Source: Alkalicella caledoniensis | GTDB lineage: Bacteria > Bacillota > Proteinivoracia > Proteinivoracales > Proteinivoracaceae | Reading direction: 5' to 3' | Assembly (NCBI RefSeq): GCF_014467015.1 | Contig: NZ_CP058559.1 | Span: 1,178,001 to 1,242,000, forward strand | Length of the DNA: 64,000 nucleotides | Shown here: piece after piece, positions 33,242 to 63,943 of the stretch | How the letters are laid out: every line of letters starts with the position of its first letter | Position numbering within the stretch: the stretch's first letter is position 1 | Position numbers and translations under genes: made by a program | The notes under the pieces: model-generated | The model's database searches: none | Told to the model about the DNA's origin: nothing | Seen by the model: only the letters and a program-made list of their open reading frames with translations

Positions 33242-33880
33242 TTACCCGAGTATATGTTTCATAATATCAACTAAATCATTAGTTCTTATATAAACATCAG
33301 CAATTCCTAGTAATTTGCTTGAGTAATTAATTGCTATTGATTTTCCACTTTCCTTAAATATTTTTATATCAGATGCACTATCTCCTACTGAAACAACTTT
33401 TTCTAATGATATATCATGTTCTTTACAAAATGATTTTAAGCTGTTTAATTTTCCCCTATCTCCTAGATGTTTTAATATTCTGCCAGTAAATCTTCCATTT
33501 TCAACTTCATATACACTTCCATAGATTTTATCGAATTTAAACATCTTTTGTATAACTTCTGCAACTTGTACTGGTCCAGCCGTCACTAGGATTACGAAAA
33601 TACCGCTGCTTTTTAATTCATTTATTACTTTTTCAATGTTATTAATCAGTTTAATATATCTTTCAAACTCTTGCTCTACTCTCTTTACTTCTAATGCAGT
33701 AAATAATTTAGATTTTATGTAATCTGCTTCTATCCAAGAAATTTCACCTTGGTCTTCTCTGTTTTCTACATCTCTAACTTCATCTATTTTTCCGCTTAAC
33801 AAACAAAGATACTCTACAGAATTAGTATTAGTAATCAGTGTTCCATCCATATCAAAACAAACTACTTTAACCTTATCCAA
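33242..33880 (-). CDS. HAD-superfamily phosphatase (SerB-like, IB type)
   Basis: 212 residues. Motif I VVCFDMDGTLI (Asp 10 nucleophile, Asp 12), motif II VILVTAGPVQ, motif III Lys (RGKLNSL) and motif IV VVSVGDSASDIKIF. A helical cap of about 60 residues sits between motifs I and II, as in phosphoserine phosphatase-like enzymes. It hydrolyses a small phosphate ester; substrate unknown. One-gene cassette between elements 33053 and 33975. Confidence 0.9.
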   Translation of the reverse strand: MDKVKVVCFDMDGTLITNTNSVEYLCLLSGKIDEVRDVENREDQGEISWIEADYIKSKLFTALEVKRVEQEFERYIKLINNIEKVINELKSSGIFVILVTAGPVQVAEVIQKMFKFDKIYGSVYEVENGRFTGRILKHLGDRGKLNSLKSFCKEHDISLEKVVSVGDSASDIKIFKESGKSIAINYSSKLLGIADVYIRTNDLVDIMKHILG

Positions 33881-34132: not shown

Positions 34133-35380
34133 TTATATATAACTTTTTTTAATTTTACTTCCGTCAAGTTTATAGTAAGTGGTCTGCTTAACCTTTTTAG
34201 AAAGTGTATAACTAGAAACATTAGCTTTTAACAAATTATCTATTTCAGTATGAGGATGTTTAAAGCCTTTGTGATTTCCAGCAGATACAAATGCAAATTG
34301 CGGTTTGATCTCATCTAACAAATCTTTATTTGTTCCAGTTCTACTGCCATGATGAGATACCTTTAATATACTTTGCTCATATGCTTTCATTTTCCCTAAT
34401 AAATGATTGTAACCAATATCTCCTGTTAAATGAGCTGAGGTATTATGATAACCCAATGTAAAACAAATAGAACTGTCATTAATATCAGGAGATACGACAT
34501 TCGTACTTGTTCTACTATCTGGGTTAACGAATTCTAAAACTGTATTTCCTTCTTTAAATTTACATGGTCTATTTAGATTAATCCATTTAGGTATTGATTT
34601 AGCTGACTTCAATAAATCACTTACTGTCTTAGTAGGATGATGATAATCCTGATTTATAATAAAATATTCTATATCAAACAGTCCTCTATCAATAATATAT
34701 TTAGCACCACGCAAGTGATCTAAATGTTTATGTGTGATTATTAAACCTTTGATTTTATCTGTATCTAACTTATGCTTACCTAATATGTGCTTAATTTCAG
34801 AACAAAACCGATTAGCATTATTTCTGCTATATACATTAGTATCTATTATATAGGCATTACCAACTGATGTAATGGCCAAAAACGAATCTCCTTGCCCGAC
34901 GTTAAAGCAATAAATATAAGGACAATCTATATCCAATTTCCCCTGTTGACAAAACAGTGGCTCCTTAATATCTTCAGGATTTCGATTATAGTCAACTGAT
35001 ATATTCAAATCATTAAATGGTGATTCAACGCGATTATCAGCAAAAATGTCATTTTTTATATCAAACCTATACTCATCGTAAGCAAATATATTCTGTCCTC
35101 TAATAGTTGATTGAGGAATCGAATAATACCCTCCTTGTACTACTGACCCAATACTTTTTTCTACCAAATAATTATAATCTACCTGAGCATTTAAAAATTC
35201 CTTTTGTAGTAATTCATCAGCAACCCTTATGTATCTTAAGTGAAATGGAGGAAAAAACTCCGAATTAATGTTTGGAATTATCTTCAACAAAAAATCTCTT
35301 TCTTTATAATGGGATATTTCATCAATTGAAAATCTTACTAAATTTCTATTTAGCAGGTAATCTTTAAACATTCTTATCAT
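34133..35380 (-). CDS. ComEC-like metallo-beta-lactamase-fold hydrolase
   Basis: 415 residues. The N-terminal 150 residues are unassigned. From about 155 the ComEC/Rec2-type MBL domain begins with CFNVGQGDSFLAI, then IIDTN, the metal motif THKHLDH (216-222), HLTGDIG and VSHHGSRTGTN, ending HPHTEIDNLL. It is soluble and lacks the ComEC membrane channel, so it is a stand-alone nuclease or phosphodiesterase-like enzyme. Such proteins turn up in defence loci. It is the sole gene of its cassette. Confidence 0.85.
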   Translation of the reverse strand: MIRMFKDYLLNRNLVRFSIDEISHYKERDFLLKIIPNINSEFFPPFHLRYIRVADELLQKEFLNAQVDYNYLVEKSIGSVVQGGYYSIPQSTIRGQNIFAYDEYRFDIKNDIFADNRVESPFNDLNISVDYNRNPEDIKEPLFCQQGKLDIDCPYIYCFNVGQGDSFLAITSVGNAYIIDTNVYSRNNANRFCSEIKHILGKHKLDTDKIKGLIITHKHLDHLRGAKYIIDRGLFDIEYFIINQDYHHPTKTVSDLLKSAKSIPKWINLNRPCKFKEGNTVLEFVNPDSRTSTNVVSPDINDSSICFTLGYHNTSAHLTGDIGYNHLLGKMKAYEQSILKVSHHGSRTGTNKDLLDEIKPQFAFVSAGNHKGFKHPHTEIDNLLKANVSSYTLSKKVKQTTYYKLDGSKIKKSYI

Positions 35381-35417: not shown

Positions 35418-35584
35418 GTATAACTTATCGAGTATTCCCGACGCTTCCGTCCCTTTAGGGGCTGGCGCAAGACTTGCCTTACCCTTATACCGTCCCGAGC
35501 TGCAAGTTTTGTGACAGAGGATATGTGGTGCAGCTTGCCCTAGAGCCTGTCCAATCCGCACTCTTTGGGAATGGCTTGTTATAT
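35418..35584 (-). repeat. attC-like element, long form
   Basis: R boxes GTATAAC (35418-35424) and GTTATAT (35578-35584); L boxes GTATTCCC and GGGAATGGC pair in part. The inner hairpins GTCCCTTTAGGGGCTGGC, CAAGACTTGC...GCAAGTTTTG and GTGGTGCAG are present. Confidence 0.82.
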
Positions 35585-43156: not shown

Positions 43157-45284
43157 ATATTTTCCCCCTTTCACCAAACGCTTCCTTACCTCCTTCAAGT
43201 GTTTTCATGCTTACTTCTTTCCAGTTAAGTATATTATCAGGTTTATTTACTTCAATTAGATTATCTGAAAAAGGATTTCCAATGAATGTACTATAATTGG
43301 TTATTTCGTGTTTTCGATATACAGAACAATATGGTAAAGTTCTGACTGCTATGTTTGCATCATGTGTTGCAATTACGACTTTTTTCCCAAGTTTAGCTCG
43401 TTCTTGAATTAAGGGAACTATTATATCGTTGATATAGTCATTTCCTAAACTTTTTTCTGGCTCGTCAAGTAGATAAATTTCTTTATCTTCACTCAATTCC
43501 TTATGTAAGAGTAGCATTGAAGCTTCACCATTAGAAGGCGAGTATAGATTATTATCTATTGCAAAGTACCTATGAAATAACAGTAAATCATCTATATCAA
43601 CAATCTCTTCAATACCGTTAATATCATTAAACTCAGATAATTCTACAAATAGATCACTTGAATACAATCGTTCTTCTATTTTAGTAATTATATTCGCGAA
43701 TTCTTTCTGAGGAGTCTTTTTTGTTCCTTTTAGAGTATTGTAATTTCCATTAGAAATCGTTCCATCCTGGGTAAATATATCCGTCTTGCAATATAGGTCT
43801 CCCTTAACACCTAAATCACCTACATATTCGCTAATAGAGTTAATTTCCTTATTCATGCTTTTTCGTATTTTCTTAACGCTATGTTCAAGGTTTACTCGAT
43901 TCCCTGCATACTTACTGAAACCAGTAGTCGTTGGTTTTGCTGGCCGTCCAGTTTTTTTAGCAATTTCAGTATTAAATACCGAGATCAAATTATTGTATAA
44001 CTCTGTGGACATCATATTTACAAATCTTGATTCACGCTCACTCTTTATAGCTCCAAAGACTTTTTCAAGAATTAACTTTAGTTCTTCATATAGCTCTGAT
44101 TTTAATATCTCTTCAAGTATTCTGTTATCAATTGCATACTCAAGTAAACCACTGATTTTGTCATGTGTGTCAATAACTTCATCAAACTTCCTACTTATCG
44201 TTGTTAAGTCTGAGATCGGATAGTCTTTAATCTTAATGCTATTAGCTCTTTGATTATTGATTCGAGAGGAAAAGAACCTTAAGTAATTAGTAAGACTTGT
44301 GATATTCTCTTCTGATGCATTTTTCAGTATATTGATTTCATCGGAGCATGATTCTATGTTCATTGATTCAAGCGTTAGATTTAAATCATTCCCCTTTATG
44401 TCATACATAGTACCCAGGTTGTCTCGACTAGACTCAAAAACAGATGTTTTTAGCCCTTTGCTATTGTAGTAGTCAGATATTGACCTAAGTATTTCTGTTT
44501 TTCCTGTACCCTTTGAACCAAATAATATATTTATATCATTGTAAATATCCAATGTAATAGATTCAGTTGGTCCGAATGGCTCCAGCTTAATAGTGTCTTT
44601 ACTTTTTAGATCTAGTAAAGTATTAATTGATGGTGCATTTTTATCTAACAGCAAACAGAATTGATTAAATGATTCCACAGGCAGTCTAAGCTCTGGTAGC
44701 TTTTCAGCCTCTTCAGTATATAAGCTCCAGTCATGAACATCTGAACCATAAATTGATTTATGGCCATGGCTTACATAAATTCCTGCTGATATTGAGTTAG
44801 TAGCCTCCTTGATAAGTCGATTTTTATTAGAAATTAATGATTCCATTTTATTAATGTCATCATCAATCAAACAAGGCTTTTTAGTAAGATAATGAGGAAT
44901 AAAAACACTATCTAAACTATCAAAATGTTTAACCGTATCCTCAATGGTTATTGTAAATTTATCAAACTTAGTACCTTCAATTAAACTGGTCATTCTTTCA
45001 TACAAAACACCTGCATTTTCCGGATTTACAATTATTAATATATGTCCTCTCCTATCTTCTTCAACAACATCTAATTCAACACCAGGCCATATTTGACAAA
45101 TGCCAGTAGTTTTTTCAACTATTTGTTCAAATTGTTCTAAGTCAAAGTAATTGTGATTTGTTATAGCTAATATTTTCACGTCTGTTGCTTTAATAATCTC
45201 AGCAAATGAATCTGGATCGACATTCCGTTTTGGTGAATCACCAGATTTTGTTTTAAGAGTATGTGCATGTACATCAATTTTCAT
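43146..45284 (-). CDS. PHP-domain AAA/ABC-type ATPase (TrlF-like), putative defence protein
   Basis: About 712 residues from the ATG at 45284, which has AAAGGAG 10 bp upstream. The N-terminal PHP phosphoesterase domain shows DVHAHTL, TNHNYFD, GVELDV, FIPHYL and SDVHDW (metal-binding His/Asp set, residues 4-184). Then comes an ABC/SMC-like ATPase with Walker A FGSKGTGKTE (about 255-264), a helical insertion of some 300 residues, an NGEASML signature, Walker B EIYLLDEPEKSLG and switch VVIATHDANIA. Proteins of this plan (TrlF-like) occur in defence islands. The PHP domain may cut nucleic acid when the ATPase senses a trigger. Confidence 0.85.
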   Translation of the reverse strand: MKIDVHAHTLKTKSGDSPKRNVDPDSFAEIIKATDVKILAITNHNYFDLEQFEQIVEKTTGICQIWPGVELDVVEEDRRGHILIIVNPENAGVLYERMTSLIEGTKFDKFTITIEDTVKHFDSLDSVFIPHYLTKKPCLIDDDINKMESLISNKNRLIKEATNSISAGIYVSHGHKSIYGSDVHDWSLYTEEAEKLPELRLPVESFNQFCLLLDKNAPSINTLLDLKSKDTIKLEPFGPTESITLDIYNDINILFGSKGTGKTEILRSISDYYNSKGLKTSVFESSRDNLGTMYDIKGNDLNLTLESMNIESCSDEINILKNASEENITSLTNYLRFFSSRINNQRANSIKIKDYPISDLTTISRKFDEVIDTHDKISGLLEYAIDNRILEEILKSELYEELKLILEKVFGAIKSERESRFVNMMSTELYNNLISVFNTEIAKKTGRPAKPTTTGFSKYAGNRVNLEHSVKKIRKSMNKEINSISEYVGDLGVKGDLYCKTDIFTQDGTISNGNYNTLKGTKKTPQKEFANIITKIEERLYSSDLFVELSEFNDINGIEEIVDIDDLLLFHRYFAIDNNLYSPSNGEASMLLLHKELSEDKEIYLLDEPEKSLGNDYINDIIVPLIQERAKLGKKVVIATHDANIAVRTLPYCSVYRKHEITNYSTFIGNPFSDNLIEVNKPDNILNWKEVSMKTLEGGKEAFGERGKIYGN

Positions 45285-45761
45285 AAAAAAGTCTCCTTTC
45301 AATTTAAATGAAATAGCTTTTAATGCCTACCTTTTCCACTGCTTTATTAACAACTTGAACCGTCCTTGGATGTTTCATTTTTACTGGACCATTTCTTTGG
45401 TTATATTCAGGTTATACACCTTTACGGATTCATCTTCTTTTCTTAGATATTCATTCTATTCCCCCTATAATAGTCCCTTCTTTTATTCGCTAAAACAACT
45501 CTTATTTCCTTTATTTTCTAGTTATTTTTCTATTTATTAAGAATTCTCGACATTTTTCACACATCTAAGCTCCTTTTGTGTTCTTCCGTTTAATGCTGCA
45601 CCTTTTGCTAGTGGATAGTCATGCACTTTTTGTATAGTTCTTTTCCCTTTTAGCAATAAGCATGTTCTGACCCTCTCAGACTGTTCAAAAGTATTCAGAT
45701 TCAAGGCACAAAAAAGCCCAGCACCGCAGCGTATAACGAATACGTGAGGATGCTGGGTGTA
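45285..45761. other. Intergenic stretch with split hairpin
   Basis: An 86-codon minus frame (45537-45797) overlaps the IS21 end and is unlikely to be a gene as such. At 45705-45757 lies a copy of the ssrA-downstream hairpin (AAAAAAGCCCAGCA ... TGCTGGG), interrupted by the IS21 element. The rest is T-rich DNA upstream of the PHP-ATPase. Confidence 0.45.
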
Positions 45762-45905: not shown

Positions 45906-46343
45906 TTAATATATCTTTATATGGTAACCATCAGTTAAAATAGATGTTTTATCGATATCTATTGTGTTTGTAATCCGATCTAGCCTGATGTATTTACTAA
46001 GTTCTAATAGTTTTTCTTGTAGAAGCTCTTTATATAGTAAATCTAGTGAGGTTTCCTTGGAGTAATGTATTTGGTGAACGATAGTATGTGAAGGCTCTTT
46101 TGAAACTTGCTTGTTACATATTTCATCTATACCCATGAATAGAGGTTCTTCTTCGTCCTTGATAACTATTTTGTTGCTAAATTCGTCATATGTGTACCCT
46201 GGGGACTTTTTAATTCTATACAACACTCCGTTAGGGGCCTTAATTCCGTATTCATTTGTTATATACTCCATAGCAGCTTTATTACCACTCTCATTATATA
46301 TTTTCACTATCGTTCCATAGTCTTCCTTACTAACTCTAGGCAT
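45906..46343 (-). CDS. Accessory gene of the IS21 element
   Basis: 145 residues, overlapping the istB stop by 8 bp. The N-terminus (MPRVSKEDYGTIVKIYNESG) has a helix-turn-helix look; the rest is helical and charged. It lies inside the IS21 ends, so it travels with istA and istB. IS21 elements usually have only two genes. I do not recognise the family; it may regulate or target transposition. Confidence 0.65.
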   Translation of the reverse strand: MPRVSKEDYGTIVKIYNESGNKAAMEYITNEYGIKAPNGVLYRIKKSPGYTYDEFSNKIVIKDEEEPLFMGIDEICNKQVSKEPSHTIVHQIHYSKETSLDLLYKELLQEKLLELSKYIRLDRITNTIDIDKTSILTDGYHIKIY

Positions 46344-46594
46344 CTTTGTTCCCCCTATTCATCTGTTTATTCTTTAGGTATTCAGCCATGTACTTTTCCC
46401 CTTTGACACGAAAACTGTCCCCTGTTATACTTAATACATGACAATGATGAACTAATCTATCTAGTATTGCAGTAGCCGCTAGTTGGCCTGTAAAAACTTC
46501 GTCCCACCTGCTTAGGGGAAGATTAGTTGTTATGATAAGGGAGCTTTTTTCGTATCTTTGCCGGATAACCTGAAAAAAAATGCTCTCTTTTTCT

Positions 46595-48292
46595 GAGGGC
46601 ACTGAAAATCTTATGTATTTCATTTAAACAGAATAACTTGTACTAAAAAAAAACGACTCTCTATTCAAAATTTGAATCTAGAGTCGTTTTTTAATGATTA
46701 TGCCATTTTTTATTTCGCTTATTCTTAATCCATTATTTTTAAAATTCTTTTTAGGTTTACCGTAAATATTGACATAGCTCCCTGCATCTCCATGCCAATT
46801 AGACCCGAGGATTTTGAAACATCATACCCGTGTCTATGTTTTAATTCACTATTTTTTGCTTCTATTTTATAGCGCTCTTTAGATTTTTCTTTAAAGTAAT
46901 CACTTTCTTGGAATTTCGCCTGCTCGGTATGTTCGTCAGATTTGATGCTTACGGAATAGGTCTTACTTTTAGCTCCAGATTTATAGCACCCTTCTTTTAA
47001 ATGGCATACCTTACACTTTTCTATATCAAAATAGTATGTGTCTGTTTGATTAGTGGAAAATTTTTTCTTCCCTTGGCGAGCTTTACGTATAGCCATATGG
47101 CCAGCCTTACATATATACATTCCAGCATCTTTATTAAAATCGAATTCATCTTCTTTTTTTCGGAAACCTTGTGTTACAGATGGGTTTAATTTGGCGACTA
47201 ATTTTATTTTTTTCTCTTTTGTATATTCAATGTTGCCTTTTTCAGAATATGCAGCATCACCGATAACAGTTTCAACTTTCATCCCAGCTTTTACACTTTT
47301 TTCTATCAGTGTTTCTAATTGTTTCCCATCATTTTTTTCTCCGGTTGTAACTGTTGCAGCTGTAATAATTCTTTCTTCGCTTATGGCAATATGGGTTTTG
47401 TAACCAAAAAATGATGTATCGGCACTTTTATGACCTATTCTTGCATCTTGATCCTGAGATATTTGTAAGTGTTCAATATCATCAGCAACTGATTCTTTTA
47501 AAAGGTTCAATTGTTCCTTTACTTTTGGATATTGAGCAAAAGCATCTTCCTTTTCAACCACCTCAATAAGCTTGTGGCAATAGTCTATTTCAGCTTCTAA
47601 GGCATCTGTTGTGTTTTTGGTAGGAAATTTATCCTTCATAGTTTCATCTATCTGATAAATAACTTTTCTCAGCTTTTTAGACCGATCCATCAGAATTTCT
47701 CTGGGGGATTTTTGATTGTAGCGCGCTCTTGTGTGGGTGGCATCCACGATAATGGATTTACTTTTGATGATTTCCTTTTCAATGGCTATTTCAACAGTTT
47801 TATTGATAAGCATATCCAATAAGTTTATATTTTCTAAGCGTAGTTTTCGAAATTTCGTAAGAGAACTTGGCTCTATCACCGACTCTTCAGGAGCCATATT
47901 TAGAAAATACTTAAAGGACATGTCATATTTTGAGCGTTCCACCACATCTACATCCGACAAGTCATAAATCGTTTTTAGTAATAAATACTTAAACATGCGA
48001 ATGGGATCGATAGCATTTCTACCGTTATTATGGCAATATTTATCTTTAAGCTCACCATAAACAAAAGAGAAGTCGACCAGATCATTAATTCTACGGAGTA
48101 AATTTTCCTTTGGAACGACCAAATTATATATCTCCATATATGGACTTAAAATCATTGACTGTTGATTTTGTATCATAGCACCCACCCAATTCTTAATTGA
48201 TACTTCAATTATACAGCAAAAAAAGCATAATTACCTTAGTGTTTAAGGAATTATGCCTTTTTTCGCTTTGAAGGGACTTTTTCAGTGCCCTC
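46595..48292 (-). mobile_element. IS1182-type insertion sequence inside istB
   Basis: Inverted ends GAGGGCACTGAAAA (46595) and TTTTTCAGTGCCCTC (48292). The 8-bp target duplication CTTTTTCT flanks it on both sides (46587-46594 and 48293-48300). 1698 bp with one transposase. The ends also fold strongly with ACGACTCT/AGAGTCGT near the left end. Confidence 0.92.
46725..48185 (-). CDS. IS1182-type transposase
   Basis: 486 residues. Conserved DDE residues lie in SIIVDATHTRARYN (Asp), VIGDAAYSEKGN (Asp) and RYKIEAKNSELKHRHG (Glu). A zinc-finger-like CKVCHLKEGC occurs near 390. The gene is complete, with no frameshift, so the element is probably active. Confidence 0.93.
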   Translation of the reverse strand: MGAMIQNQQSMILSPYMEIYNLVVPKENLLRRINDLVDFSFVYGELKDKYCHNNGRNAIDPIRMFKYLLLKTIYDLSDVDVVERSKYDMSFKYFLNMAPEESVIEPSSLTKFRKLRLENINLLDMLINKTVEIAIEKEIIKSKSIIVDATHTRARYNQKSPREILMDRSKKLRKVIYQIDETMKDKFPTKNTTDALEAEIDYCHKLIEVVEKEDAFAQYPKVKEQLNLLKESVADDIEHLQISQDQDARIGHKSADTSFFGYKTHIAISEERIITAATVTTGEKNDGKQLETLIEKSVKAGMKVETVIGDAAYSEKGNIEYTKEKKIKLVAKLNPSVTQGFRKKEDEFDFNKDAGMYICKAGHMAIRKARQGKKKFSTNQTDTYYFDIEKCKVCHLKEGCYKSGAKSKTYSVSIKSDEHTEQAKFQESDYFKEKSKERYKIEAKNSELKHRHGYDVSKSSGLIGMEMQGAMSIFTVNLKRILKIMD

Positions 48293-49806: not shown

Positions 49807-51060
49807 ATGATAACAGATTTTAAGACATTGATTACTTTGTGTGAAGATGAGTTGAACATTCGGCAGTATAATGCTTCATATCAGCGAAGTATCCTAGCGG
49901 AGTGGGGGAATCTTACAAAATGGATGACTTTAAACAAGTTTAAGGATTTTACCGAGTCTATTGGTTTCCAATACTTAGATGAGACTTTAGGGACCCATAT
50001 TTCTGTCAAGGGTCTAGCGAACGGTAAAAAGCTACGTTTACGTGCAGTCCGTATGCTCTCTTCTTATCAAAAGGATGGTGATTTTGAATTCCGTACGCCA
50101 CGAATTGAGAGAGTTTTTTATGGAGATATAGGCAATGAAATGTTATTGTATCTATCCTACCTTAGAAGTGAAAAAAATCTTTCTGAGAGTACACTCAAAA
50201 ATAAGGAACAGTATTTATATGATTTCTTCTGTTATCTAGAAAAAAAATCGCTTAAATTGAATAATCTTTCTGTTGAAACAATGGAGGATTTTTTTAGTTC
50301 TATGAAATATTCACTCGCATCTAGGCACAACTGCGGTTCAGCGCTACGCATTTATTTTAGATATGCATATGAAAATGGAATTTCCAAATCAGACAGTTCG
50401 TTGTTAATTTTAAAAGATAATTACAACCATAACTGTAAGCTCCCCACAACTTACGAAGAAGACGAAATTCGCACAATCATTTCCTCAGTTGAGCGAACCT
50501 CTGCCACTGGGAAAAGGGATTATTTGATTTTGCTCCTTGCCGCTGAATATGGATGGCGATCAAATGATATTGTGAACTTTCAGTTTAACCAAATAGACTG
50601 GGAGAAAAATATCGTTTGTTTCAACCAACATAAAACTGATATGGCAGTAGAATATCCTCTACTATCTTCAATTGGTAATGCCATTATTGACTATTTGAAG
50701 CACGGTAGGCCGTCAACAGATGTACAGGAAATCATCGTTTCCACAGAATCATCAAAAAGGGGTCGGCCACTTTCAACACCGACGATACATTCTATTGTAA
50801 CGAAGTACATGCGTAAGGCAAACATAAAGAACTGGAAAAACAAGAAACACGGTCCACATTCTCTACGCCACAGCCTAGCTACAAACATGCTAAAAAAGAA
50901 TGTATCTATGCCCATAATCAGTTCCGTGCTTGGACACCAGAATACTGAAACAACCAAGATATATCTGAAAGTAGATATCGAAAAGTTACGATTATGCCCA
51001 CTTTCCTTGCCAATAATATCTTCAAAACATTACATGGCAGGGAGGTGTAAGCATGAGTAG
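49807..51060 (+). CDS. RIT tyrosine recombinase A
   Basis: 417 residues. A SAM-like/core-binding N-terminal domain (LSYLRSEKNLSESTLKNKEQ) precedes the catalytic domain with Arg (AAEYGWRSND), HSLRH (HxxR), LGHQNTETTK and nucleophile Tyr (TTKIYLKVD). Its 3' end overlaps the next gene by 8 bp. GGAGGG precedes the ATG. Longest of the three, as in other RIT elements. Confidence 0.93.
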   Translation: MITDFKTLITLCEDELNIRQYNASYQRSILAEWGNLTKWMTLNKFKDFTESIGFQYLDETLGTHISVKGLANGKKLRLRAVRMLSSYQKDGDFEFRTPRIERVFYGDIGNEMLLYLSYLRSEKNLSESTLKNKEQYLYDFFCYLEKKSLKLNNLSVETMEDFFSSMKYSLASRHNCGSALRIYFRYAYENGISKSDSSLLILKDNYNHNCKLPTTYEEDEIRTIISSVERTSATGKRDYLILLLAAEYGWRSNDIVNFQFNQIDWEKNIVCFNQHKTDMAVEYPLLSSIGNAIIDYLKHGRPSTDVQEIIVSTESSKRGRPLSTPTIHSIVTKYMRKANIKNWKNKKHGPHSLRHSLATNMLKKNVSMPIISSVLGHQNTETTKIYLKVDIEKLRLCPLSLPIISSKHYMAGRCKHE

Positions 51061-52027
51061 ACCAATGTTTAAATCTATTTTTTCTGAGGAAATGTATCAT
51101 TATTTAGACCATATGGTAGCAACGGGTCATAAAGAAGTAAGTTTTTGCAAGCATTTACGGCTGTTTGACCGATTTTGTACTGAAAATGAAATACTTCAGC
51201 CAGTATTCAATAGTCAACATGCAATGAAATGGATTCAACGGAAAGAAAACGAAGCTAGTACCACCCATTATTCTCGAATCAATGGAATTAAGCAATTTCT
51301 GATCTATCTCTGTCGTAAAGGATATGAAATCTTTGTGACAAGAGATGTATGTTTCAAGCAAACAGATTTCCAACCATATATTTATGCGGAAGATGAGATA
51401 GCAAGATATTTTCATGCAGTTGATACATATGAATCTGCACGTAATCGTAAGGACAGCATTCAACTACCAATCCTTTTCCGATTACTCTACTGCTGTGGAA
51501 CTAGAATTAACGAAACGCTTGGTATCAGAAAACAGGATGTGGACCTTGAGGATGGAATCATTAAGCTATTTGAAACAAAGAACAATAATGAGCGTTATAT
51601 CGTGTTAAACGAAGAGATGGCCGGTCTTATGTGTCAGTATGCACAAAAATGTTTTTACCTTTTAGATGAAAAAGACTATATATTTACCAAGTCTAATGGA
51701 AGCCGATTAGATGGTGAGGCTCTTTATGAACGTCATAGGCTTTTCCTTCAAAAAGCAAGAATTCCGTATATTGGTGGAGGAAGAGGTCCAAGACTGCACG
51801 ACTGGCGTCATACTTTTTCTGTGCAATCATTTAAGCAAATGGTTGATTCTGGCCTAGATATGTACGTAGCGCTCCCCATTCTATCCAGTTATCTCGGCCA
51901 CAAAACAATATATGCTACTGAGAGATATGTTCGACTGACAATGAGTCTGTATCCGTATATTGAGGATCGTTTTAAAGACAAAGTAAATAAGGTGTTCGGC
52001 GAGGTGGACAAACATGAAATCCACTGA
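51053..52027 (+). CDS. RIT tyrosine recombinase B
   Basis: 324 residues. Catalytic Arg is in YCCGTRINETLGIRKQDVDL, HxxR is LHDWRHTFS, then LGHKTIYATERYVRL with the nucleophile Tyr. Its ends overlap both neighbours (8 and 14 bp), so the trio is translated together. GGGAGGTG precedes the ATG. Confidence 0.93.
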   Translation: MSRPMFKSIFSEEMYHYLDHMVATGHKEVSFCKHLRLFDRFCTENEILQPVFNSQHAMKWIQRKENEASTTHYSRINGIKQFLIYLCRKGYEIFVTRDVCFKQTDFQPYIYAEDEIARYFHAVDTYESARNRKDSIQLPILFRLLYCCGTRINETLGIRKQDVDLEDGIIKLFETKNNNERYIVLNEEMAGLMCQYAQKCFYLLDEKDYIFTKSNGSRLDGEALYERHRLFLQKARIPYIGGGRGPRLHDWRHTFSVQSFKQMVDSGLDMYVALPILSSYLGHKTIYATERYVRLTMSLYPYIEDRFKDKVNKVFGEVDKHEIH

Positions 52028-53033
52028 TTTTGCAATGTACCTTAACAAATATTTTACCGTTTACCTTCCAAATGTTAAGGGTATGACACCATTAACAATT
52101 GATTCTTACAGATACACTTTTATACTTTTCTTGACGTGCTTGCAGGAAGAACTTAATATTTCTGCAAACAGAGTACAGATGTCTGACCTTTCGTATAAGA
52201 ACGTACTTCTATTCCTGGAATGGCTTCAGAAACAACGTCTAAACAGTATATCAACAAGGAACCAGAGGCAGGCAGCAATCAATAGTTTTGTAAGGTTTCT
52301 AATGTATGAATTTCCTGAGTGTCTAGATAATTATCAACGAATCGTAGGGATTCCGATAAAAAAAGCACCGCAGAAAGAAATATCCTACATGAAAACAGAT
52401 GGGGTAAAATTAATGATGTCTCAGATAGATGTCGCTTCTTCTGGAGGGTTGCGAGATTATGTCATGTTGTCCCTTCTCTATACTACAGGCATGCGTGTCA
52501 GCGAACTCATAAGTATCCGGGTAAAAGATTTATCCCTTTATGAACCATACACGCTTTTACTTCGCGGTAAAGGGCATAAAAGCCGCTATGTACCACTTAT
52601 GAAGGATATCATTCCTTTCATCCACCAATATTTAGTACAAGAAGGATATGATAGGCAAGAAAAACTTAGTGAATGGTTGTTTAAGAACCATATGAAAAGC
52701 CAATTAACTAGACAGGGTATAAATTACCTTGTCGGTAAATATGCGAAACGTGCTAGAGAAATTAATTCGGAGATAATTCCAGCGGATTTTAGTCCTCACA
52801 AAATGAGACATACAACGGCTATGGGACTCGTTGATTCTGGGGTTGACCTAATTTACATACGGGATTTACTAGGTCATGTCAGTGTTAAAACTACGGAAGT
52901 TTACGCAAAAGCAGAAGTAAGCAGAAAGCGTGAAGCTATTGAAGCTGCTAGCAAGGAGATTGTTCCACCGGAAAAAGCACAATGGGATAACAATACTGAT
53001 TTAAAACAGTGGCTAAAAACATTCAACCGCTGA
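52014..53033 (+). CDS. RIT tyrosine recombinase C
   Basis: 339 residues. Catalytic residues in TTGMRVSELISIRVKDLSL (Arg), SPHKMRHTTAM (HxxR), DLLGHVSVKTTEVYAKAE (His and Tyr), which is the most XerD-like of the three. The C-terminal tail (KAQWDNNTDLKQWLKTFNR) is element-specific. Confidence 0.93.
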   Translation: MKSTDFAMYLNKYFTVYLPNVKGMTPLTIDSYRYTFILFLTCLQEELNISANRVQMSDLSYKNVLLFLEWLQKQRLNSISTRNQRQAAINSFVRFLMYEFPECLDNYQRIVGIPIKKAPQKEISYMKTDGVKLMMSQIDVASSGGLRDYVMLSLLYTTGMRVSELISIRVKDLSLYEPYTLLLRGKGHKSRYVPLMKDIIPFIHQYLVQEGYDRQEKLSEWLFKNHMKSQLTRQGINYLVGKYAKRAREINSEIIPADFSPHKMRHTTAMGLVDSGVDLIYIRDLLGHVSVKTTEVYAKAEVSRKREAIEAASKEIVPPEKAQWDNNTDLKQWLKTFNR

Positions 53034-54094: not shown

Positions 54095-54420
54095 TGGTGG
54101 AGGCGGGGGGAGTCGAACCCCCGTCCGAAGGCATCTTAACAGCAGTATCTCCGAGCGCAGTCTCTACTTTGGAGTTCGCATCTTTAGGCTTCTAGAGACA
54201 AAATCTTAAAGATACTAGCTTCTTAGTTTCCTTACCAAGTCGAAGCAACTTTGGAAAGTAGTCTGCTATTTGTTTTCGTCTCAGTCACCAGTCACAGACA
54301 AACTAGTGGTAAGACGTCCGCTGACTATGCAGCGAAAGCTAAATTATTGTTTGTTTTAGCGTTTAATTTAAGTTTCCAGTTATTAACGTGGCCCTGGCCC
54401 ACGGCTCGCTACTCCCATCT
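54095..54420 (-). ncRNA. ssrA: tmRNA (ssrA) copy 2, 5' end not found
   Basis: Nearly identical to copy 1 at 38725-39051 over the whole 326 nt, including the tag frame (AKTNNNLAFAA), the pseudoknots, the T-arm and CCA. The two copies diverge immediately upstream of AGATGGGAGTAGC. No 5' tRNA-like strand is visible in the next 100 bases. It is the second duplicate of an ssrA 3' portion in the same orientation, about 15.4 kb from copy 1. Confidence 0.85.
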
Positions 54421-54534
54421 CAACTAGAGATATAGATCATTAAAAATAGTAGCAGTTTGCTTTTAAACATAGTCATAACTTTCGCAAACAACTACACATA
54501 GCTTTGTATATTGGTCTCATTTTTTCAAGAATTG

Positions 54535-55966: not shown

Positions 55967-56857
55967 ATTAGGGGTCAGGCTTGAAGTTTTTCCATTCTCT
56001 CTTTCAACTCATCATTTACCTGCCTAACTATATCAGCAACCTTAATATCAAGACGCTTTTTCTCTGCTTTAATCTTGGAGGTAGCTGATGGCGATAAGTT
56101 TAGTAGCCTTGCTAGTTCGTTGTTTGAAATCTCAACGTATTTATCACTGAGTATCACAATGGCTTTTCTAGCAATTACGTACTCTTTAAGTTTCGTCTTA
56201 TCTGTTATTTCTTTCTTGCTTAAACCAGTTTTCTCACATACACAATTTATTACATCATCAACGCTAACAACTAAAGCAGGCTAAACCCTTGAACTCCTCT
56301 ACAGTAGCGTGTACTTTTTTTTCATCTAAGACAAATTCACTAAGTTCCATTTTCCCTTGGTCAAGATTCATAAATCTTCTATATTCCTTAACTCCACGCT
56401 TAATATCTCCACCCAGCATTTCCAGTATAAACTCCACTTCAACTACGGATTTCTTATTCACCTTTAAATAATCCTGATGACTACTCCATTTATAATTAAG
56501 TCCATTATAAATCCATGCTTCAACTGGATTTAAGTGTATATACTTTACTAGTTGTAACAAGTATGACTCCCAGTCGCATAGCAATGCTTTGTACCGCTGC
56601 TGGAATACATGACCAGTTCTAGAATGCTTCAAATTAATTCTTTGGGTATAGCTTTGCTGTATTCCCTGCATGATCTTAGACAGTGGCACTTTCCCGGTTT
56701 CTATAAGCAAATGAACATGGTTATCCATAATGCAATAGGCATAGAGCTTAAAGCCATATCGTTCTTTATATTTATCCACTAGAAATAAGTATAGTTCTTT
56801 ATCTTGATTATTGCGAAAAATATACTCCCCATTGCTACCTCTGTACATTACATGATA
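55967..56857 (-). pseudogene. REP-type Y1 transposase, frameshifted copy
   Basis: About 95 % identical to the gene at 37001-37942. An 11-bp deletion near 56285 breaks the frame, leaving 56264-56848 (with the HUH motif) and 55975-56157 (C-terminal helix-turn-helix). The left terminal repeat is present (from 55970); the right end is cut off at 56857 by an IS3 remnant. Confidence 0.9.
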
Positions 56858-57072: not shown

Positions 57073-57546
57073 TTATTCTTCACCGACTATTTTCTCTAAT
57101 CTCCGATTCCTTTTTTCTTTACAAGATTCACACCATGCATTTAACGCAATTTTGCCCATTCCAACAAGTAATAAAGCTATAACGGGAGCTATAAAGGCAC
57201 CTGATGAACCAACTACAGGTGCTATTGCAGAGGAAATCAATCCTATGGCATACCCTTTAGATAAATTGACTTCACTAGAAAGTTTCTTCCTATAATCGTC
57301 ATATTTTTCATCACCACAAATCAAACCTTCTAGCTCTTCTTCTACTTTTTCCAAGAATATATTTTCTCCCTTTATGGTACCAAAAGGAGCGGTATTTTGG
57401 GGACTTGCTGTTAACCATAATATCGCGGTTTCTTTTGGCGATTTACCACTCGAGAGAATTTGCTTAATTCTATTTTTTTGATATGAAGGTAAAGTGTCAA
57501 CCCATGACTCTTGTTCATCAAAAATTAGTCCATTAAAACTATCCAT
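57073..57546 (-). CDS. Helical membrane protein coupled to the protease
   Basis: 157 residues. The N-terminal 95 residues are soluble (SWVDTLPSYQKNRIKQILSS, containing AILWLTASPQNTAPFGTIKG). A hydrophobic, glycine-rich double helix follows (YAIGLISSAIAPVVGSSGAF and IAPVIALLLVGMGKIALNAW) and a basic tail. Its start overlaps the protease stop by 8 bp. It might be a membrane effector activated by proteolysis, which is inference. Confidence 0.65.
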   Translation of the reverse strand: MDSFNGLIFDEQESWVDTLPSYQKNRIKQILSSGKSPKETAILWLTASPQNTAPFGTIKGENIFLEKVEEELEGLICGDEKYDDYRKKLSSEVNLSKGYAIGLISSAIAPVVGSSGAFIAPVIALLLVGMGKIALNAWCESCKEKRNRRLEKIVGEE

Positions 57547-58408
57547 TGTATATCATCTCCTTTAAATATTCTGCAGAAACAGCATGTGTTGTTTGATGTA
57601 GAGTTTGAGGATCGATTCCCCCGATACTAATTCCACCATTGCTTGAAGGTGCGTATGAACCAATAAGTATTCCAACTACCTCCATACTACTTAGCTTAAT
57701 TATAGGTCCACCAGATTGTCCTGGACGAGATTGAACATTTAAAATTATATGTTTAGTTTTTATTCCCCCACTTTCTATCATTACCTTTGCTCCTATTTGT
57801 GTCCTCTGTTCAGTCAATACCATTCTACCTTGATCTGCGTGTGGAAAACCAAAAATAGCAACTGAATCACCAGGCACACATTCATCTGCTCCACTAATAT
57901 TTACATTTGAAGTTGCTCCATTTTCTACCTTTATAATAGATAAATCACAAAAAGGGTCTGTAGCATGTATTTTAGCAGGGATACTATTAACTTTTTTATT
58001 AGTCGTATCTTGGTAATTGTAAAATGATTCAGTTTTATTAAGTATAATCACTAAGTTCTTGTCATCATTATTTGTCACATGGGATGCCGTTGCAAAATAA
58101 CCTGGTGCCCCTAACATAAAAGCTGTACCTAAAAGATTAATTCCATTTTGCGTTATTCTTCCTACTGGAAAAACAATTTTATTAATATGTTGAAATGAAC
58201 ATGCCCCTGTCAAGTAGACAGTAGAAAAAACAAAAAATACTATGCCGTCAATCATTAATTTGATTGGCGTTATTTTTTTGAAGGTTTTATTTATTTTACC
58301 CGCATTTATTCCACGGTCCTGTTGACATGGGGGCCCCTGTACCCTCTGGACTCCCATTCTTGGGCGGAAGTTGATACTTGACAAATATTTGGCTTCCGCC
58401 ACACACAT
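57539..58408 (-). CDS. Trypsin-like serine protease
   Basis: 289 residues as drawn. Catalytic triad: His in FATASHVTN (110), Asp in DPFCDLSIIKV (155), Ser in SRPGQSGGPIIKL (232), the S1 fold family. The true start is probably the ATG at 58255 (MIDGIVFFVFSTVYLTGACS), which gives a signal with a lipobox-like LTGAC; the 51 residues before it overlap a palindromic element and lack coding character. So the protease is likely membrane anchored. Paired with the membrane protein at 57073. Confidence 0.82.
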   Translation of the reverse strand: MCVAEAKYLSSINFRPRMGVQRVQGPPCQQDRGINAGKINKTFKKITPIKLMIDGIVFFVFSTVYLTGACSFQHINKIVFPVGRITQNGINLLGTAFMLGAPGYFATASHVTNNDDKNLVIILNKTESFYNYQDTTNKKVNSIPAKIHATDPFCDLSIIKVENGATSNVNISGADECVPGDSVAIFGFPHADQGRMVLTEQRTQIGAKVMIESGGIKTKHIILNVQSRPGQSGGPIIKLSSMEVVGILIGSYAPSSNGGISIGGIDPQTLHQTTHAVSAEYLKEMIYNG

Positions 58409-60217: not shown

Positions 60218-60375
60218 GTCTAACGTCCCAGCTATTTTCAACGTACCGTATTGACCCAAGACTTGCCCTCCTACAGGTACAGCCCCTAAGTTGCAAGTCT
60301 TGGGTCATAGGCCAATGTGGTGCGGCAATCCCCAAGCCTGCCCACACTGCACCTTGAGGGAATGGCTTGTTATCG
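60218..60375 (-). repeat. attC-like element, long form
   Basis: R boxes GTCTAAC (60218-60224) and GTTATCG (60369-60375); L boxes AGCTATTTTC and GGGAATGGCT. The inner hairpin CCCAAGACTTGC...GCAAGTCTTGGG is longer than in other copies, with both arms changed together. GTGGTGCGG...CCACACTGCAC follows. It lies 63 bp after the reverse transcriptase stop. Confidence 0.88.
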
Positions 60376-60438
60376 GATGTCAATGCCTTCCTCGAATTGC
60401 CTTGAGTTCCCTTCTTTTATTTTTATTACTTCATAGGA

Positions 60439-61995
60439 TCAATCCTCTTTTGTCGCTATTTTATTTTCATAAGCTGTGTTATTTTCTTCTATTTTCAAAG
60501 TTAAATAATCGTTAATTGCATCATTAACCTCTGGTACACTTCTGATAATTGATTTATTCAAAGAAATATTGTTCTTATAAAATTCCATGTATGTACTTTC
60601 TTGAAGGGGTTTTTTGGCGTTATCCGGCATCAAGTATTTTCTAACACTACCCTCCAAGTCAGCCTTTAAATCAGGTGAGTACAATATAAGATGATAATTC
60701 TGAAACCAATAATGCTCATCGTCCATTTCCTTCAATTTATTTATATCTATTGTACTGAATAGCCCATCTTTTAGGTAATAAGAGATTAGTAGTTGATTAT
60801 TAGTCAAAAGCACTTTTTGGGTAGTTGCTTCAAATATATCCGAGAAACCAAATATGCTAATTGCATAATAATAGTATAATTGTTCATCGTAAAACTGTTT
60901 CTGAAGTGCTTCTCTATATCTAACTTCTAGAAATTTGACTAGTTTTTGATTGTTGAAATTACTCATTGCATTAAATTTATCGGCTGTATATAAAAAAGCC
61001 TCAGGGGAAAATTTCAGAATAAAACAAAGTTGGTGATAGTCATAATTCATTACTGTATACTTTTCTAAATCTATCATTTCTCTAAAATACCTAGTTTTGA
61101 AAAAGTTATTGATAAAAACAGTTTTTAGTTTTCTATCAGACAAATTAGACATTCTATATATGATTTGATTTATAAAATGTAGCCTATGTTCTTCTTTTTC
61201 ATAGTTATAATATTTTATATTACATTCCGCAATCATTTTTTTCCAATATCGACCAACTAAATTATAGTTGTTAAAAGTCTCATATGTCCACTCTTCCTTC
61301 TTATCTTCGTTACGTTCAAGCTCATATTTTTCTAATACCTCATCAAAAATTCTTAATATAATCTCTGCATCCCCCTTATTACAGAAGAAATAAAAGTCAT
61401 CAGAAAAATAATTAAACTCGCAGTTTAACTGCAAATCAGTAATTTTCTTCTCAATATCATTGCTAATATTTTTTAAGTTTAGTTCAGCAAAATACAACGA
61501 TAAATAATTTCCCATTATTAATCCGTTTGTTTGCCCTAGGTTCATATTAGTTAGGTAATTCTCTTTATTCCCTAATGAGCCAATATAATGAGTATATATT
61601 CTTCCATAATACTCTTTTATATCTACCTTCAATAAAATATCGTACACACATAGCATGTTAAAATCCTTTTCCAGTTGTTTATCGTATTCTCCAGATACAA
61701 AATCTCCTGTTACTATGTTTGCTGATAATCGTTTATGACCTGAATCTAAATCCTGAATGCTATCAAAAGAAGGGAGATTTTTAAACTGCCCATAAGCAGT
61801 AACAAAGTTCAAGATATTTGGGATTTTGAGGGTACGAAATTTATCTTCATTTTTCTTCACTCTAAAATTAAACGGTTTAACCCAACATAAATTCTTTATA
61901 GTATAGGAAGATAAATCATCTGGGAAAGCAAGAGATTCAATATCAATAAAAAACCTGACTGGTTTTTTAAAATTATAAAGATTATTAAGACTCAT
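60439..61995 (-). CDS. Reverse transcriptase of the Abi/UG (defence-associated) type
   Basis: 518 residues. Motif A LLKVDIKEYYGRIYTH (Asp 125), motif B GQTNGLIMGNYLSLYFAEL (154 on) and motif C NYFSDDFYFF (Asp 199, Asp 200) are those of a polymerase. There is no maturase or endonuclease domain and no intron or retron RNA sign around it. The 250-residue C-terminal part is helical and repeat-like, as in AbiA/AbiK-type enzymes. The likely role is abortive phage defence. It is the only gene of its cassette. The class within the UG/DRT groups cannot be settled here. Confidence 0.85.
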   Translation of the reverse strand: MSLNNLYNFKKPVRFFIDIESLAFPDDLSSYTIKNLCWVKPFNFRVKKNEDKFRTLKIPNILNFVTAYGQFKNLPSFDSIQDLDSGHKRLSANIVTGDFVSGEYDKQLEKDFNMLCVYDILLKVDIKEYYGRIYTHYIGSLGNKENYLTNMNLGQTNGLIMGNYLSLYFAELNLKNISNDIEKKITDLQLNCEFNYFSDDFYFFCNKGDAEIILRIFDEVLEKYELERNEDKKEEWTYETFNNYNLVGRYWKKMIAECNIKYYNYEKEEHRLHFINQIIYRMSNLSDRKLKTVFINNFFKTRYFREMIDLEKYTVMNYDYHQLCFILKFSPEAFLYTADKFNAMSNFNNQKLVKFLEVRYREALQKQFYDEQLYYYYAISIFGFSDIFEATTQKVLLTNNQLLISYYLKDGLFSTIDINKLKEMDDEHYWFQNYHLILYSPDLKADLEGSVRKYLMPDNAKKPLQESTYMEFYKNNISLNKSIIRSVPEVNDAINDYLTLKIEENNTAYENKIATKED

Positions 61996-62050
61996 TTTGT
62001 ATCACTCATTTCTTTTAGAGTTTTCTATATGTTTATATATGCATGATTTC

Positions 62051-62206
62051 CAATAACGTCTCTGCCATTCCCATGTGCCCGTAATTGGCGCAAGACTTGC
62101 CCCTCCTACAATACAGTCTCTAGTTGCAAGTCTTGTGACAAATGCATGTGGGTGCGGCAAGCCCCAGAGCCTGTCCACACCTCGCCTGTGGGAATGGTGC
62201 GTAGAA
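62051..62206 (-). repeat. attC-like element, long form
   Basis: R box CAATAAC on the left; L boxes GCCATTCCCA and TGGGAATGGT pair almost perfectly. The right R box has changed to GCGTAGA. The inner CAAGACTTGC...GCAAGTCTTG and GTGCGGCAAGCCCC...CCACACC stems are conserved. Confidence 0.85.
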
Positions 62207-62222
62207 ATCGTTTTCGCGAATG

Positions 62223-62795
62223 TTAGTATGTTTCCCAAGAAATCTTGTCCAATTCATTCAATAAACTATCCCAAACTTCACCTTCAAACCATTCGACTTT
62301 TCCTTTATCAATTTTGCCAAGTGAAACCAACCATTCTGGCGCATAGCTCTTATTCCCATTATAAAGTCGCCATTCAAACCCATTGGTATAAAGAACTTTT
62401 TTAAACTTAGCAATATGATCTAGTAGTTGTTTTGATTTACCATTTAGCTTCACTGTCATACGTTTTATTTCAACTGCGCCAAGAATTTTACTTGTATCTC
62501 TAAATTTGTCATCAAACAAATAGAAGTCTTCAGATAGTATAACAAAATCTGGAAACCCAGACTTACTAGCATAAATCTCAGAACCTGAAAATTCGCTTTT
62601 GCGTCTAGTAGAAACATCTCGCAAAGAAATTTTTTTATTCTGATTTCTTTCTCTAATCAAACACGCAACAATCGAGTATAGTTCACACTCGATCGGATTT
62701 TGCATATAAATTAATTCCAGCTCCCGCTGATATAACCTGAAATCATCTGAATTCTTCATTACTCTCCTCCTAAAAATATGTTTCTTACATTTCAT
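62223..62795 (-). CDS. PD-(D/E)XK nuclease-like protein
   Basis: 190 residues. GFPDFVIL (Asp) and LGAVEIKRM (E-x-K) are spaced about 33 residues apart, as in the PD-(D/E)XK fold. The N-terminus has no signal, and the C-terminus (WVSLGKIDKGKVEWFEGEVW) is beta-rich. It lies between two attC-like elements as one cassette. Endonuclease or restriction-like function is inferred from the motif only. Confidence 0.7.
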   Translation of the reverse strand: MKCKKHIFRRRVMKNSDDFRLYQRELELIYMQNPIECELYSIVACLIRERNQNKKISLRDVSTRRKSEFSGSEIYASKSGFPDFVILSEDFYLFDDKFRDTSKILGAVEIKRMTVKLNGKSKQLLDHIAKFKKVLYTNGFEWRLYNGNKSYAPEWLVSLGKIDKGKVEWFEGEVWDSLLNELDKISWETY

Positions 62796-62851
62796 CCGGT
62801 TGTGCTATCCTTCTTTATCACATTTATATTATACTGCCAATTGATTCTTTC

Positions 62852-63003
62852 GCCTAACATCCTGCTACTCCCAACATGGTCGCCTCTTTAGGCTGGCGCA
62901 AGACTTGCATTCACCCTTTGCCATCCAGAGTCGCAAGTCTTGTGACAGAGGACATGTGGCGCGCAACCCCCAGGTCTTAAAAACAGGGAATGGTTTGTTA
63001 TCA
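62852..63003 (-). repeat. attC-like element, long form
   Basis: R boxes GCCTAAC (62852-62858; GTTAGGC on the minus strand) and GTTATCA (62997-63003). L boxes CTACTCCC and GGGAATGG pair in part. The CAAGACTTGC...GCAAGTCTTG stem is intact. It follows the membrane-protein stop by 116 bp. Confidence 0.85.
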
Positions 63004-63118: not shown

Positions 63119-63943
63119 TTATTTTTTAATAATGTATTTAATTCCTGTTACCAATACTGCTATAACACCAACAACACTACCTATCAAAGTTGCTAACCTT
63201 TCATCTTTGAAGATTAAAAAAATTAAACTGAATCCGGCAAAAACCCAAGTTGATAATATTATATACCTCTTCTTTCCTCTTAATAATGATTCACTCTTAG
63301 TTGATGAGAATTGAACGTCCTCGTCTGTAATGAATAAATCTAATTCGTGAAAAAGCTCATCATATTTTTGATTGTATAAATTCCTAACTTCCTTCGATGT
63401 ATTAGCCATTTCTGTATCTGTTTCAGAGTACAACGCTGTGTTACCAATAAGAAGCATATATTGTTTTTCGAGCTTATTTAATAACTCTACATATTTTTCT
63501 TTTATTTCCTCATTATCTATCTGTATAACAAAATATCCATTTAATAATTTAACTATCTTGTCTACCTTCTGGACAATATCTTCTTTATCTTTTAAGAAAA
63601 CAAAAGAATTCTCCAGGTTATATTTTAAAGTATATAAATCATTAACTATGATTCTGATAATAAATTTAAGCCTTAATTTTTGGTATAAACTATTGTATTG
63701 ATTAGATCTATAAACATTAATCTGTTTTATTAAGTAATGAATCCAGCAAAAAACCTTATCGTTTATACTAATCTTACTTAATGGGTTAATACTCTCATTC
63801 GTTATAAAAATAATAGAAGAAATAAAAACAATCGCTATGCCAACGAAATAATAAGTATCTTTAAAGGCGATTCTAAAGTATAAACCCTTAAAAAAACTTA
63901 TTAGCATAATCAATACTCCAACTATGGCTAATATAATAAACAT
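63119..63943 (-). CDS. Membrane protein with long cytoplasmic helical domain
   Basis: 274 residues. Two helices at the N-terminus (IILAIVGVLIMLISFF and IGIAIVFISSIIFITNESI), a helical middle domain of about 160 residues, and two helices at the C-terminus (YIILSTWVFAGFSLIFLIF and LIGSVVGVIAVLVTGIKYII). The arrangement recalls SLATT-like or defence effector membrane proteins, but I cannot assign a family. First cassette visible upstream of the RT group; the window ends 57 bp later. Confidence 0.6.
   Translation of the reverse strand: MFIILAIVGVLIMLISFFKGLYFRIAFKDTYYFVGIAIVFISSIIFITNESINPLSKISINDKVFCWIHYLIKQINVYRSNQYNSLYQKLRLKFIIRIIVNDLYTLKYNLENSFVFLKDKEDIVQKVDKIVKLLNGYFVIQIDNEEIKEKYVELLNKLEKQYMLLIGNTALYSETDTEMANTSKEVRNLYNQKYDELFHELDLFITDEDVQFSSTKSESLLRGKKRYIILSTWVFAGFSLIFLIFKDERLATLIGSVVGVIAVLVTGIKYIIKK

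What the first reader, a model, noticed from the sequence alone, without database searches (positions are those of the whole stretch)
60439..61995. Reverse transcriptase carried as a cassette
A complete UG/Abi-type reverse transcriptase (VDIKEYY, GQTNG, YFSDD) is the only gene between two attC-like elements. Reverse transcriptases of this type are phage-defence proteins. A mobile cassette form would link integron-like arrays to defence in Gram-positive bacteria.
Basis: partly seen in the sequence, partly recalled or inferred. Interest (0 to 1): 0.82.

Follow-up and report, generated by a model that had tools for sequence, protein, structure and literature searches.

The report
Phage-defence-type enzyme in Gram-positive integron
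A reverse transcriptase of an anti-phage type sits alone in a gene cassette of a decayed integron-like array in a Gram-positive bacterium. The array belongs to a widespread, apparently undescribed relative of integrons whose recombinase lacks the domain that defines known integron integrases, and related arrays carry other such defence-type enzymes.

Summary
ORF 60439-61995(-) is a complete 518-aa reverse transcriptase of the UG/Abi group RT_UG31 and the only gene between two attC-like sites. The window holds nine such sites, all on one strand, and the rest of the 3.7-Mb genome has none.

The same site family, kept by compensatory base changes, occurs in 23 of 399 Bacillota genomes, often in dense arrays. 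The arrays examined start with one family of tyrosine recombinase that points the same way as the cassette genes. This family resembles integron integrase IntI but lacks the IntI-specific insert. In one genome, whole cassettes recur at distant array positions with breakpoints at the attC-type cut (G|TTA), so cassettes of this system have moved. The window's own array keeps only a stop-ridden relic of this integrase, between ssrA and the first cassette.

Sister arrays carry further defence-type RTs as cassettes: UG13a, and Drt8 with a broken frame.

Phage defence by this RT and recombination by these integrases are inferred, not tested.

The parts
60439..61995 (-). UG31-type (UG/Abi, DRT) reverse transcriptase, 518 aa, motif C FSDD
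60224..62056 (-). Predicted RT gene cassette (cut G|TT in gene orientation, AA|C on + strand): one gene plus its attC-like site
   Evidence: inferred from the cut site demonstrated in the sister array of G233
60220..60375 (+). attC-like site downstream of the RT; gene-strand R' box GTTAGAC fits GTTRRRY
   Evidence: 130.9 bits
62053..62207 (+). attC-like site upstream of the RT (belongs to the preceding cassette)
   Evidence: 138.1 bits
62853..63003 (+). attC-like site; gene-strand R' box GTTAGGC fits GTTRRRY
   Evidence: 116 bits
62223..62795 (-). 190-aa ORF of the neighbouring cassette (62057-62857); PDFVIL...GAVEIKR looks like a PD-(D/E)XK nuclease by eye only
   Evidence: no library hit
63119..63943 (-). 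First cassette ORF, membrane protein of unknown family (313 aa if the start in L025 is used)
35420..35584 (+). attC-like site
   Evidence: 159.6 bits
33977..34118 (+). attC-like site with internal deletions
   Evidence: 124.1 bits
33053..33218 (+). attC-like site (best match; + strand fold z -3.3, - strand -0.8)
   Evidence: 178.6 bits
31267..31407 (+). Partial attC-like site (only the right part, from about 31330, is recognisable)
   Evidence: 58.1 bits
27865..28028 (+). attC-like site
   Evidence: 155.6 bits
23913..24076 (+). attC-like site at the distal end of the array
   Evidence: 169.5 bits
31718..32920 (-). Cassette ORF, 400 aa lipoprotein-like, weak ChaN/Tiki similarity
33242..33880 (-). 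Cassette ORF, HAD-family hydrolase
34133..35380 (-). Cassette ORF, metallo-beta-lactamase fold, weak LmuA/RTasMBL similarity

Best explanation
The RT is the cargo of an integron-type gene cassette. The window holds a decayed (CALIN-like) array of an integron-like system found across Bacillota and in some Bacteroidota. In intact members a tyrosine recombinase related to IntI and XerA, lacking the IntI-specific insert, lies upstream of the array in the cassette direction. It probably binds the folded bottom strand of the attC-like sites and recombines at G|TTA, moving promoter-poor single-gene cassettes. In this genome the integrase is reduced to a 59-codon C-terminal relic between ssrA and the first cassette, so the array is frozen. 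Shown: UG31 placement, array anatomy, covarying structure, cassette movement in a sister genome, integrase association and the relic. Inferred: the catalyst, and RT function. The cassette leaves only about 60 bp on either side of the ORF outside attC, and the next-best models (Drt6, Drt3b, Drt4, AbiP2, AbiK) are Abi-like. The most likely RT mechanism is therefore stand-alone, class-1-like, protein-primed DNA synthesis without a separate ncRNA or effector, triggered by phage infection (about 65% likely).
For: RT_UG31 318.9 bits. Nine same-strand elements confined to this locus. Same family in 23/399 Bacillota genomes, many in arrays. 26 of 32 pairs show compensatory changes; covariation 0.310 against at most 0.095 for slid controls. 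Bottom strand folds better in 93/102 copies. Whole-cassette duplicates, 95-100% identical, unrelated flanks, identity ending 2-11 bp beyond the predicted cut in 9 of 11 pairs. Longest ORF in gene orientation in 50/63 cassettes and 168/199 ORFs. Array integrases lack the IntI insert, group with IntI apart from Xer, and are closest in PDB to IntI4 2a3v. In 22 of 25 integrase loci with 10 kb on both sides, three or more repeat copies lie downstream; in 2 of 25, upstream. Relic 47% identical to this family, E 2e-8, against 0.008 for true IntI. DRT-type RT cassettes in sister arrays.
Against: No recombination or phage assay. The window's own sites have lost the strand folding bias (mean -0.24 kcal/mol) and several R' boxes do not fit GTTRRRY. 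Transposons interrupt the array, and its middle 24.6 kb has no site. attI was not identified. Extrahelical bases were not mapped. No UG31 relative was found in another cassette; the UG31 family is rare in the sample.
Confidence: 0.85

Rival explanations
1. The repeats are dispersed palindromes of a transposon or RAYT/REP or MITE type, and the RT lies between two copies by chance.
For: Y1 (RAYT-like) transposases lie in the window and the elements are palindromic.
Against: All nine copies lie in one 39-kb stretch on one strand and nowhere else in 3.7 Mb. They alternate with single same-direction genes. Whole cassettes, not the element alone, are the moving unit. A recombinase heads the sister arrays.
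Confidence: 0.04
2. It is a canonical integron with an ordinary IntI acquired from Gram-negative bacteria.
For: TIGR02249 recognises the relic's C-terminus; the attC sites look alike; IntI4 is the best PDB match of the sister integrase.
Against: Sister integrases lack the IntI-specific insert and stay below the TIGR02249 cut-off (245.8, 212.8, 195.2 and 187.4 against 265). The relic fits them far better than true IntI. Integrase orientation is that of the cassettes. The relic itself is too short to show the insert.
Confidence: 0.08
3. The RT cassette is real but its product has a non-defence role (for example DNA-end processing or regulation), or is inert cargo.
For: No functional data for UG31 in the papers held; array cassettes carry many housekeeping-like functions.
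Against: Nearest families are DRT/Abi enzymes, many shown to be antiphage; further DRT-type RTs occur in sister arrays.
Confidence: 0.25
4. The RT is an integrated group II intron or retron enzyme; group IIC introns are known to target attC sites.
For: A group-II-like RT does lie in a sister array (L124:17612-18865).
Against: The window RT matches neither Pfam RVT_1 nor retron or group II models; its full length fits UG31. Intron RNA was not specifically sought beyond Rfam (no hit here).
Confidence: 0.01

Closest known systems
Sedentary chromosomal integrons / CALINs (IntegronFinder sense)
   Same: Tandem single-gene cassettes, attC sites with R''/L'' and L'/R' boxes and a GTTRRRY-type cut, bottom-strand folding bias, an IntI-like tyrosine recombinase at the array head, and whole cassettes as the moving unit
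   Different: The recombinase lacks the IntI-specific domain and points in the same direction as the cassettes. Hosts are mainly Bacillota, where IntegronFinder 2.0 reports one complete integron (Limnochorda pilosa) and a few CALIN (PMC9024848)
XerA / XerC-like tyrosine recombinases (NF040815)
   Same: Best NCBIfam model for the array integrases; catalytic R-K-H-R-H-Y present; no IntI insert
   Different: Found at cassette arrays, and the SPLD-type C-terminus is shared with IntI; the tree groups them with IntI apart from XerC/D
UG31 and other class 1 UG/Abi RTs (AbiK, Abi-P2, Drt3b, Drt4, Drt6)
   Same: Full-length match to UG31, weaker full-length or RT-domain matches to the Abi-like families
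   Different: Carried as a single-gene cassette; UG31 itself not found tested in the library
Defence cassettes of Vibrio and mobile integrons
   Same: Anti-phage-type genes carried as integron cassettes (from own knowledge of 2025 work; not read here)
   Different: Gram-positive hosts, a different integrase type, and RTs as cargo

Membership tests
RT_UG31 (UG/Abi, DRT) | Best and near full-length match to the family profile | tested here: met
   318.9 bits, residues 2-484, profile 5-453/456; next family 78.2 bits
RT_UG31 (UG/Abi, DRT) | Catalytic [YF]xDD and motif A Asp intact | tested here: met
   FSDD and VDIKEYY in the ORF
RT_UG31 (UG/Abi, DRT) | Antiphage activity | not testable with these tools
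   needs phage challenge
Class 1 UG/Abi RT (AbiK-like) | C-terminal alpha-helical HEAT-like repeat domain and template-free synthesis | not tested
   no structure predicted; inferred from next-best families and the lack of room for a separate ncRNA gene
Integron: attC sites | Imperfect palindrome with AAC...GTT ends and conserved structure | tested here: met
Integron: attC sites | R' box GTTRRRY | tested here: inconclusive
   met in some window sites (GTTAGAC, GTTAGGC, GTTAGAT) and many sister sites (GTTAGGC, L137, L138); others read GTTATNN or are decayed
Integron: attC sites | Strand asymmetry favouring the bottom strand | tested here: met
   93 of 102 sites family-wide; not met in the window's own decayed sites
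Integron: cassette mobility | Whole cassettes move, with breakpoints at the R' cut | tested here: met
   G233, 9 of 11 duplicate pairs; not shown for the window array itself
Integron integrase IntI | IntI-specific domain around patch III | tested here: not met
   absent from all sister array integrases aligned; TIGR02249 below cut-off
Integron integrase IntI | Catalytic tyrosine recombinase residues | tested here: met
   invariant R, K, H-x-x-R, H and Y columns in A6; only the C-terminal part survives in the window relic
Integron | attI site next to the integrase | not tested
   not searched for systematically
Integron | Integrase-catalysed single-strand recombination | not testable with these tools
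   bench assay needed

The most novel reading that the evidence does not exclude
Bacillota, and some Bacteroidota, hold a large, overlooked reservoir of integron-like arrays. They are run by integrases without the IntI-specific domain, in same-direction orientation, and defence-type reverse transcriptases recur among their cassettes. IntI may have arisen from within this integrase group by gaining its domain, which would make these arrays relatives of the ancestral integron.
Probability: 0.6. Interest if true: 0.93.

Novelty: new variant of a known kind. Interest (0 to 1): 0.85.

Why it matters
Integrons are regarded as nearly absent from Gram-positive bacteria, and their integrase is defined by a domain thought necessary for recombining folded attC sites. 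Arrays whose cassettes have visibly moved, but whose integrase lacks that domain, would change the definition of an integron and its evolutionary origin, and would explain a large hidden pool of mobile genes in Paenibacillaceae and Clostridia. DRT-type reverse transcriptases among the cassettes show that such arrays can act as a library of phage-defence genes outside Proteobacteria, and give a direct way to find new ones.

Tried and rejected
Rfam shows no known RNA family at the elements. RAYT/REP, MITE and terminator explanations were rejected because the elements are confined to one strand of one locus and sit in cassette anatomy. RIT recombinase trios (49807-53033) were considered as the mobiliser and rejected: they occur in four copies elsewhere in the genome, without such sites, and the matching relic belongs to another family. 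A canonical IntI was sought in the genome and found only as a relic. RT relatives were sought in plasmids and viral contigs, with none found. Other Bacillota hits to the UG31 profile that were checked are UG30, Drt4 and Abi-P2 enzymes, not UG31. The integrase N-terminal domain alone was too variable for a collection scan. A model of the window's sites (R1) finds only one site near 80 named integrase loci, because site sequences diverge between genera; self-comparison was used instead. An AU test does not reject a single clade of insert-less integrases excluding IntI (p 0.18), so nesting of IntI is suggested, not shown. The 32-pair structure was fitted to the same model, so the pair counts lean towards it. 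ARAGORN found no intact tmRNA in the window. The PDB has no sequence relative of the RT.

Full report
WHAT IS THERE. PADLOC places it in RT_UG31 with 318.9 bits over almost the whole profile; the next families are Drt6 (78 bits), Drt3b, Drt4, AbiP2, UG14, UG30 and AbiK. Pfam finds nothing, RVT_1 included. NCBIfam finds only a weak Drt3b domain match, and no PDB sequence is related. It is a UG/Abi enzyme, not a group II intron or retron enzyme.

THE FLANKING ELEMENTS. The RT lies between elements at 60220-60375 and 62053-62207. The core hairpin pattern occurs five times in the window, never in shuffles, and nowhere else in the genome. A covariance model built from eight copies finds nine in the window, all on the + strand, and none elsewhere in the 3.7-Mb genome or in twelve genomes of the same class. 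Genes between the elements run on the minus strand, one per interval in the clean stretches. Read in gene direction, an element begins near TATAACA and ends in CGTTA; the R' boxes near the RT and the next cassette are GTTAGAC and GTTAGGC, which fit the attC consensus GTTRRRY. The predicted RT cassette is 60224-62056.

THE SAME SYSTEM ELSEWHERE. The model matches in 23 of 399 Bacillota genomes from about 20 genera. In several they form dense arrays: G233 has at least 46 sites in two 40-kb regions. Sites keep their structure by compensatory changes: 26 of 32 pairs change on both sides, and the covariation score is 0.310 against at most 0.095 when partners are slid (the alignment was fitted to this structure, so the counts lean its way). 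Among 102 distinct sites the strand corresponding to attC bottom strand folds better in 93. In real attC sites the bottom strand is the one recombined (PMC8946536).

CASSETTES HAVE MOVED. In G233, whole cassettes recur at distant positions. Nine of eleven duplicate pairs examined have unrelated flanks on both sides (25-41% identity), are 95-100% identical, and lose identity 2-11 bp beyond the predicted cut on either side. The other two pairs belong to larger duplicated blocks. Cassettes are also shared between genomes, for example 1,022 bp at 97.6% between G233 and G363. This is the signature of site-specific cassette exchange.

THE RECOMBINASE. In the G233, G091, G058 and G134 arrays a tyrosine recombinase ORF lies upstream of the array in the cassette direction; in G233 it is split, apparently disrupted. 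These enzymes share the R-K-H-R-H-Y residues and the SPLD-type C-terminus with IntI but lack its specific insert. TIGR02249 stays below cut-off for all four tested, and XerA (NF040815, named by NCBI 'site-specific tyrosine recombinase/integron integrase') is the best model. The closest solved structure is IntI4 of Vibrio (2a3v). In trees they group with IntI and apart from XerC/D (100/99 support). IntI falls among them, but an AU test does not reject the alternative (p 0.18). A scan of one genome per species with the integrase core gave 80 named loci, all matching across the region where IntI has its insert with no room for it. Of the 25 loci with 10 kb on both sides, 22 have three or more repeat copies downstream of the integrase and 2 have them upstream (counted). 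Hosts include Cohnella, Saccharibacillus, Paenibacillus, Acididesulfobacillus, Halonatronum, Alkaliphilus and Flavobacterium. Their sites read as attC, for example in L137 TAACA-GCGTATTCCC ... GGGAATACGC-GGGAC-GTTAGGC. Of 199 array ORFs, 168 follow the integrase direction.

THE WINDOW'S OWN INTEGRASE IS A RELIC. The IntI profile picks up a fragment with three stops at genome position 1242118-1242276, 118 bases beyond the window's right end. It reads ...LLCHKSNKTTENYIHVSV*SLLKISNPLDQL and is 47% identical to the insert-less Bacillota integrases (E 2e-8 on 4 kb), against E 0.008 for true IntI. It lies between ssrA and the first cassette, in the cassette direction, as in the intact arrays. The window is therefore a decayed, CALIN-like array; its own sites have also lost the strand folding bias and transposons interrupt it.

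DEFENCE CARGO. Among 135 cassette-array ORFs of sister loci, four match RT/DRT models. These are a full-length RT_UG13a in Paenibacillus montaniterrae (E 1.9e-226; cassette about 17495-19586 in L158), both halves of a Drt8 in Paenibacillus sp. An7 (L190, frame broken), and a group-II-like RT in Halonatronum (L124). So RT cassettes of the UG/DRT kind recur, although UG31 itself was seen only here.

LIKELY MECHANISM OF THE RT. Outside the ORF and attC the cassette has only about 60 bp on either side, with no room for an effector gene or a sizeable separate ncRNA. [quoted passage not shown]), and the next-best profile matches are of the Abi-like kind. I infer the same for UG31. No promoter stands out upstream of the RT, so expression may depend on read-through or on an unrecognised promoter.

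LITERATURE. IntegronFinder 2.0 reports one complete integron in Firmicutes (Limnochorda pilosa) and a few CALIN (PMC9024848). Archaeal and bacterial IntI are defined by the IntI-specific domain (PMC9668308). Searches of the open library found no description of insert-less integron integrases in Bacillota. Subscription papers and most preprints are not held, so novelty is provisional.

Noticed in passing
window 38725-39062 and 54095-54424; L025:1682-2038: Three ssrA (tmRNA) copies: an intact one next to smpB just outside the window, and two copies in the window that lack the first ~30 bases but are otherwise near-identical, suggesting repeated island insertion or rearrangement at ssrA.
   Followed up: partly
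window 49807-53033: Three consecutive tyrosine recombinase genes (RIT-like trio), present in four copies in the genome.
   Followed up: partly
window 57073-58408: PDC-M35A/PDC-M35B pair (phage-defence candidate; trypsin-like protease plus small membrane protein) close to the RT cassette but without a recognisable attC site.
   Followed up: partly
window 43146-45302 and 46336-46623: Large PHP/AAA ATPase-like protein (PDC-M49A match) and a DrmD fragment in the 24.6-kb stretch without sites.
   Followed up: no
L100-L103 (G233): Many cassettes of about 425-500 bp without an ORF of 60 aa or more, some in several identical copies; what they carry is unknown.
   Followed up: no
L062, L118, L101 integrases, first ~90 aa: Array integrases carry an extra N-terminal domain (motif G-R-x-W-x-P-x-x-K-x-W-x-x-P) that matches no Pfam family.
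   Followed up: partly
L124:17612-18865 (Halonatronum saccharophilum): Group-II-intron-like RT inside the array, reminiscent of group IIC introns that target attC sites.
   Followed up: no
L155 and L161 (Flavobacterium, Bacteroidales): The same integrase type heads repeat arrays in Bacteroidota, so the system is not limited to Gram-positive bacteria.
   Followed up: partly
window 37001-37942 and 55975-56848: Two near-identical RAYT-like Y1 transposase genes, the second one broken.
   Followed up: no
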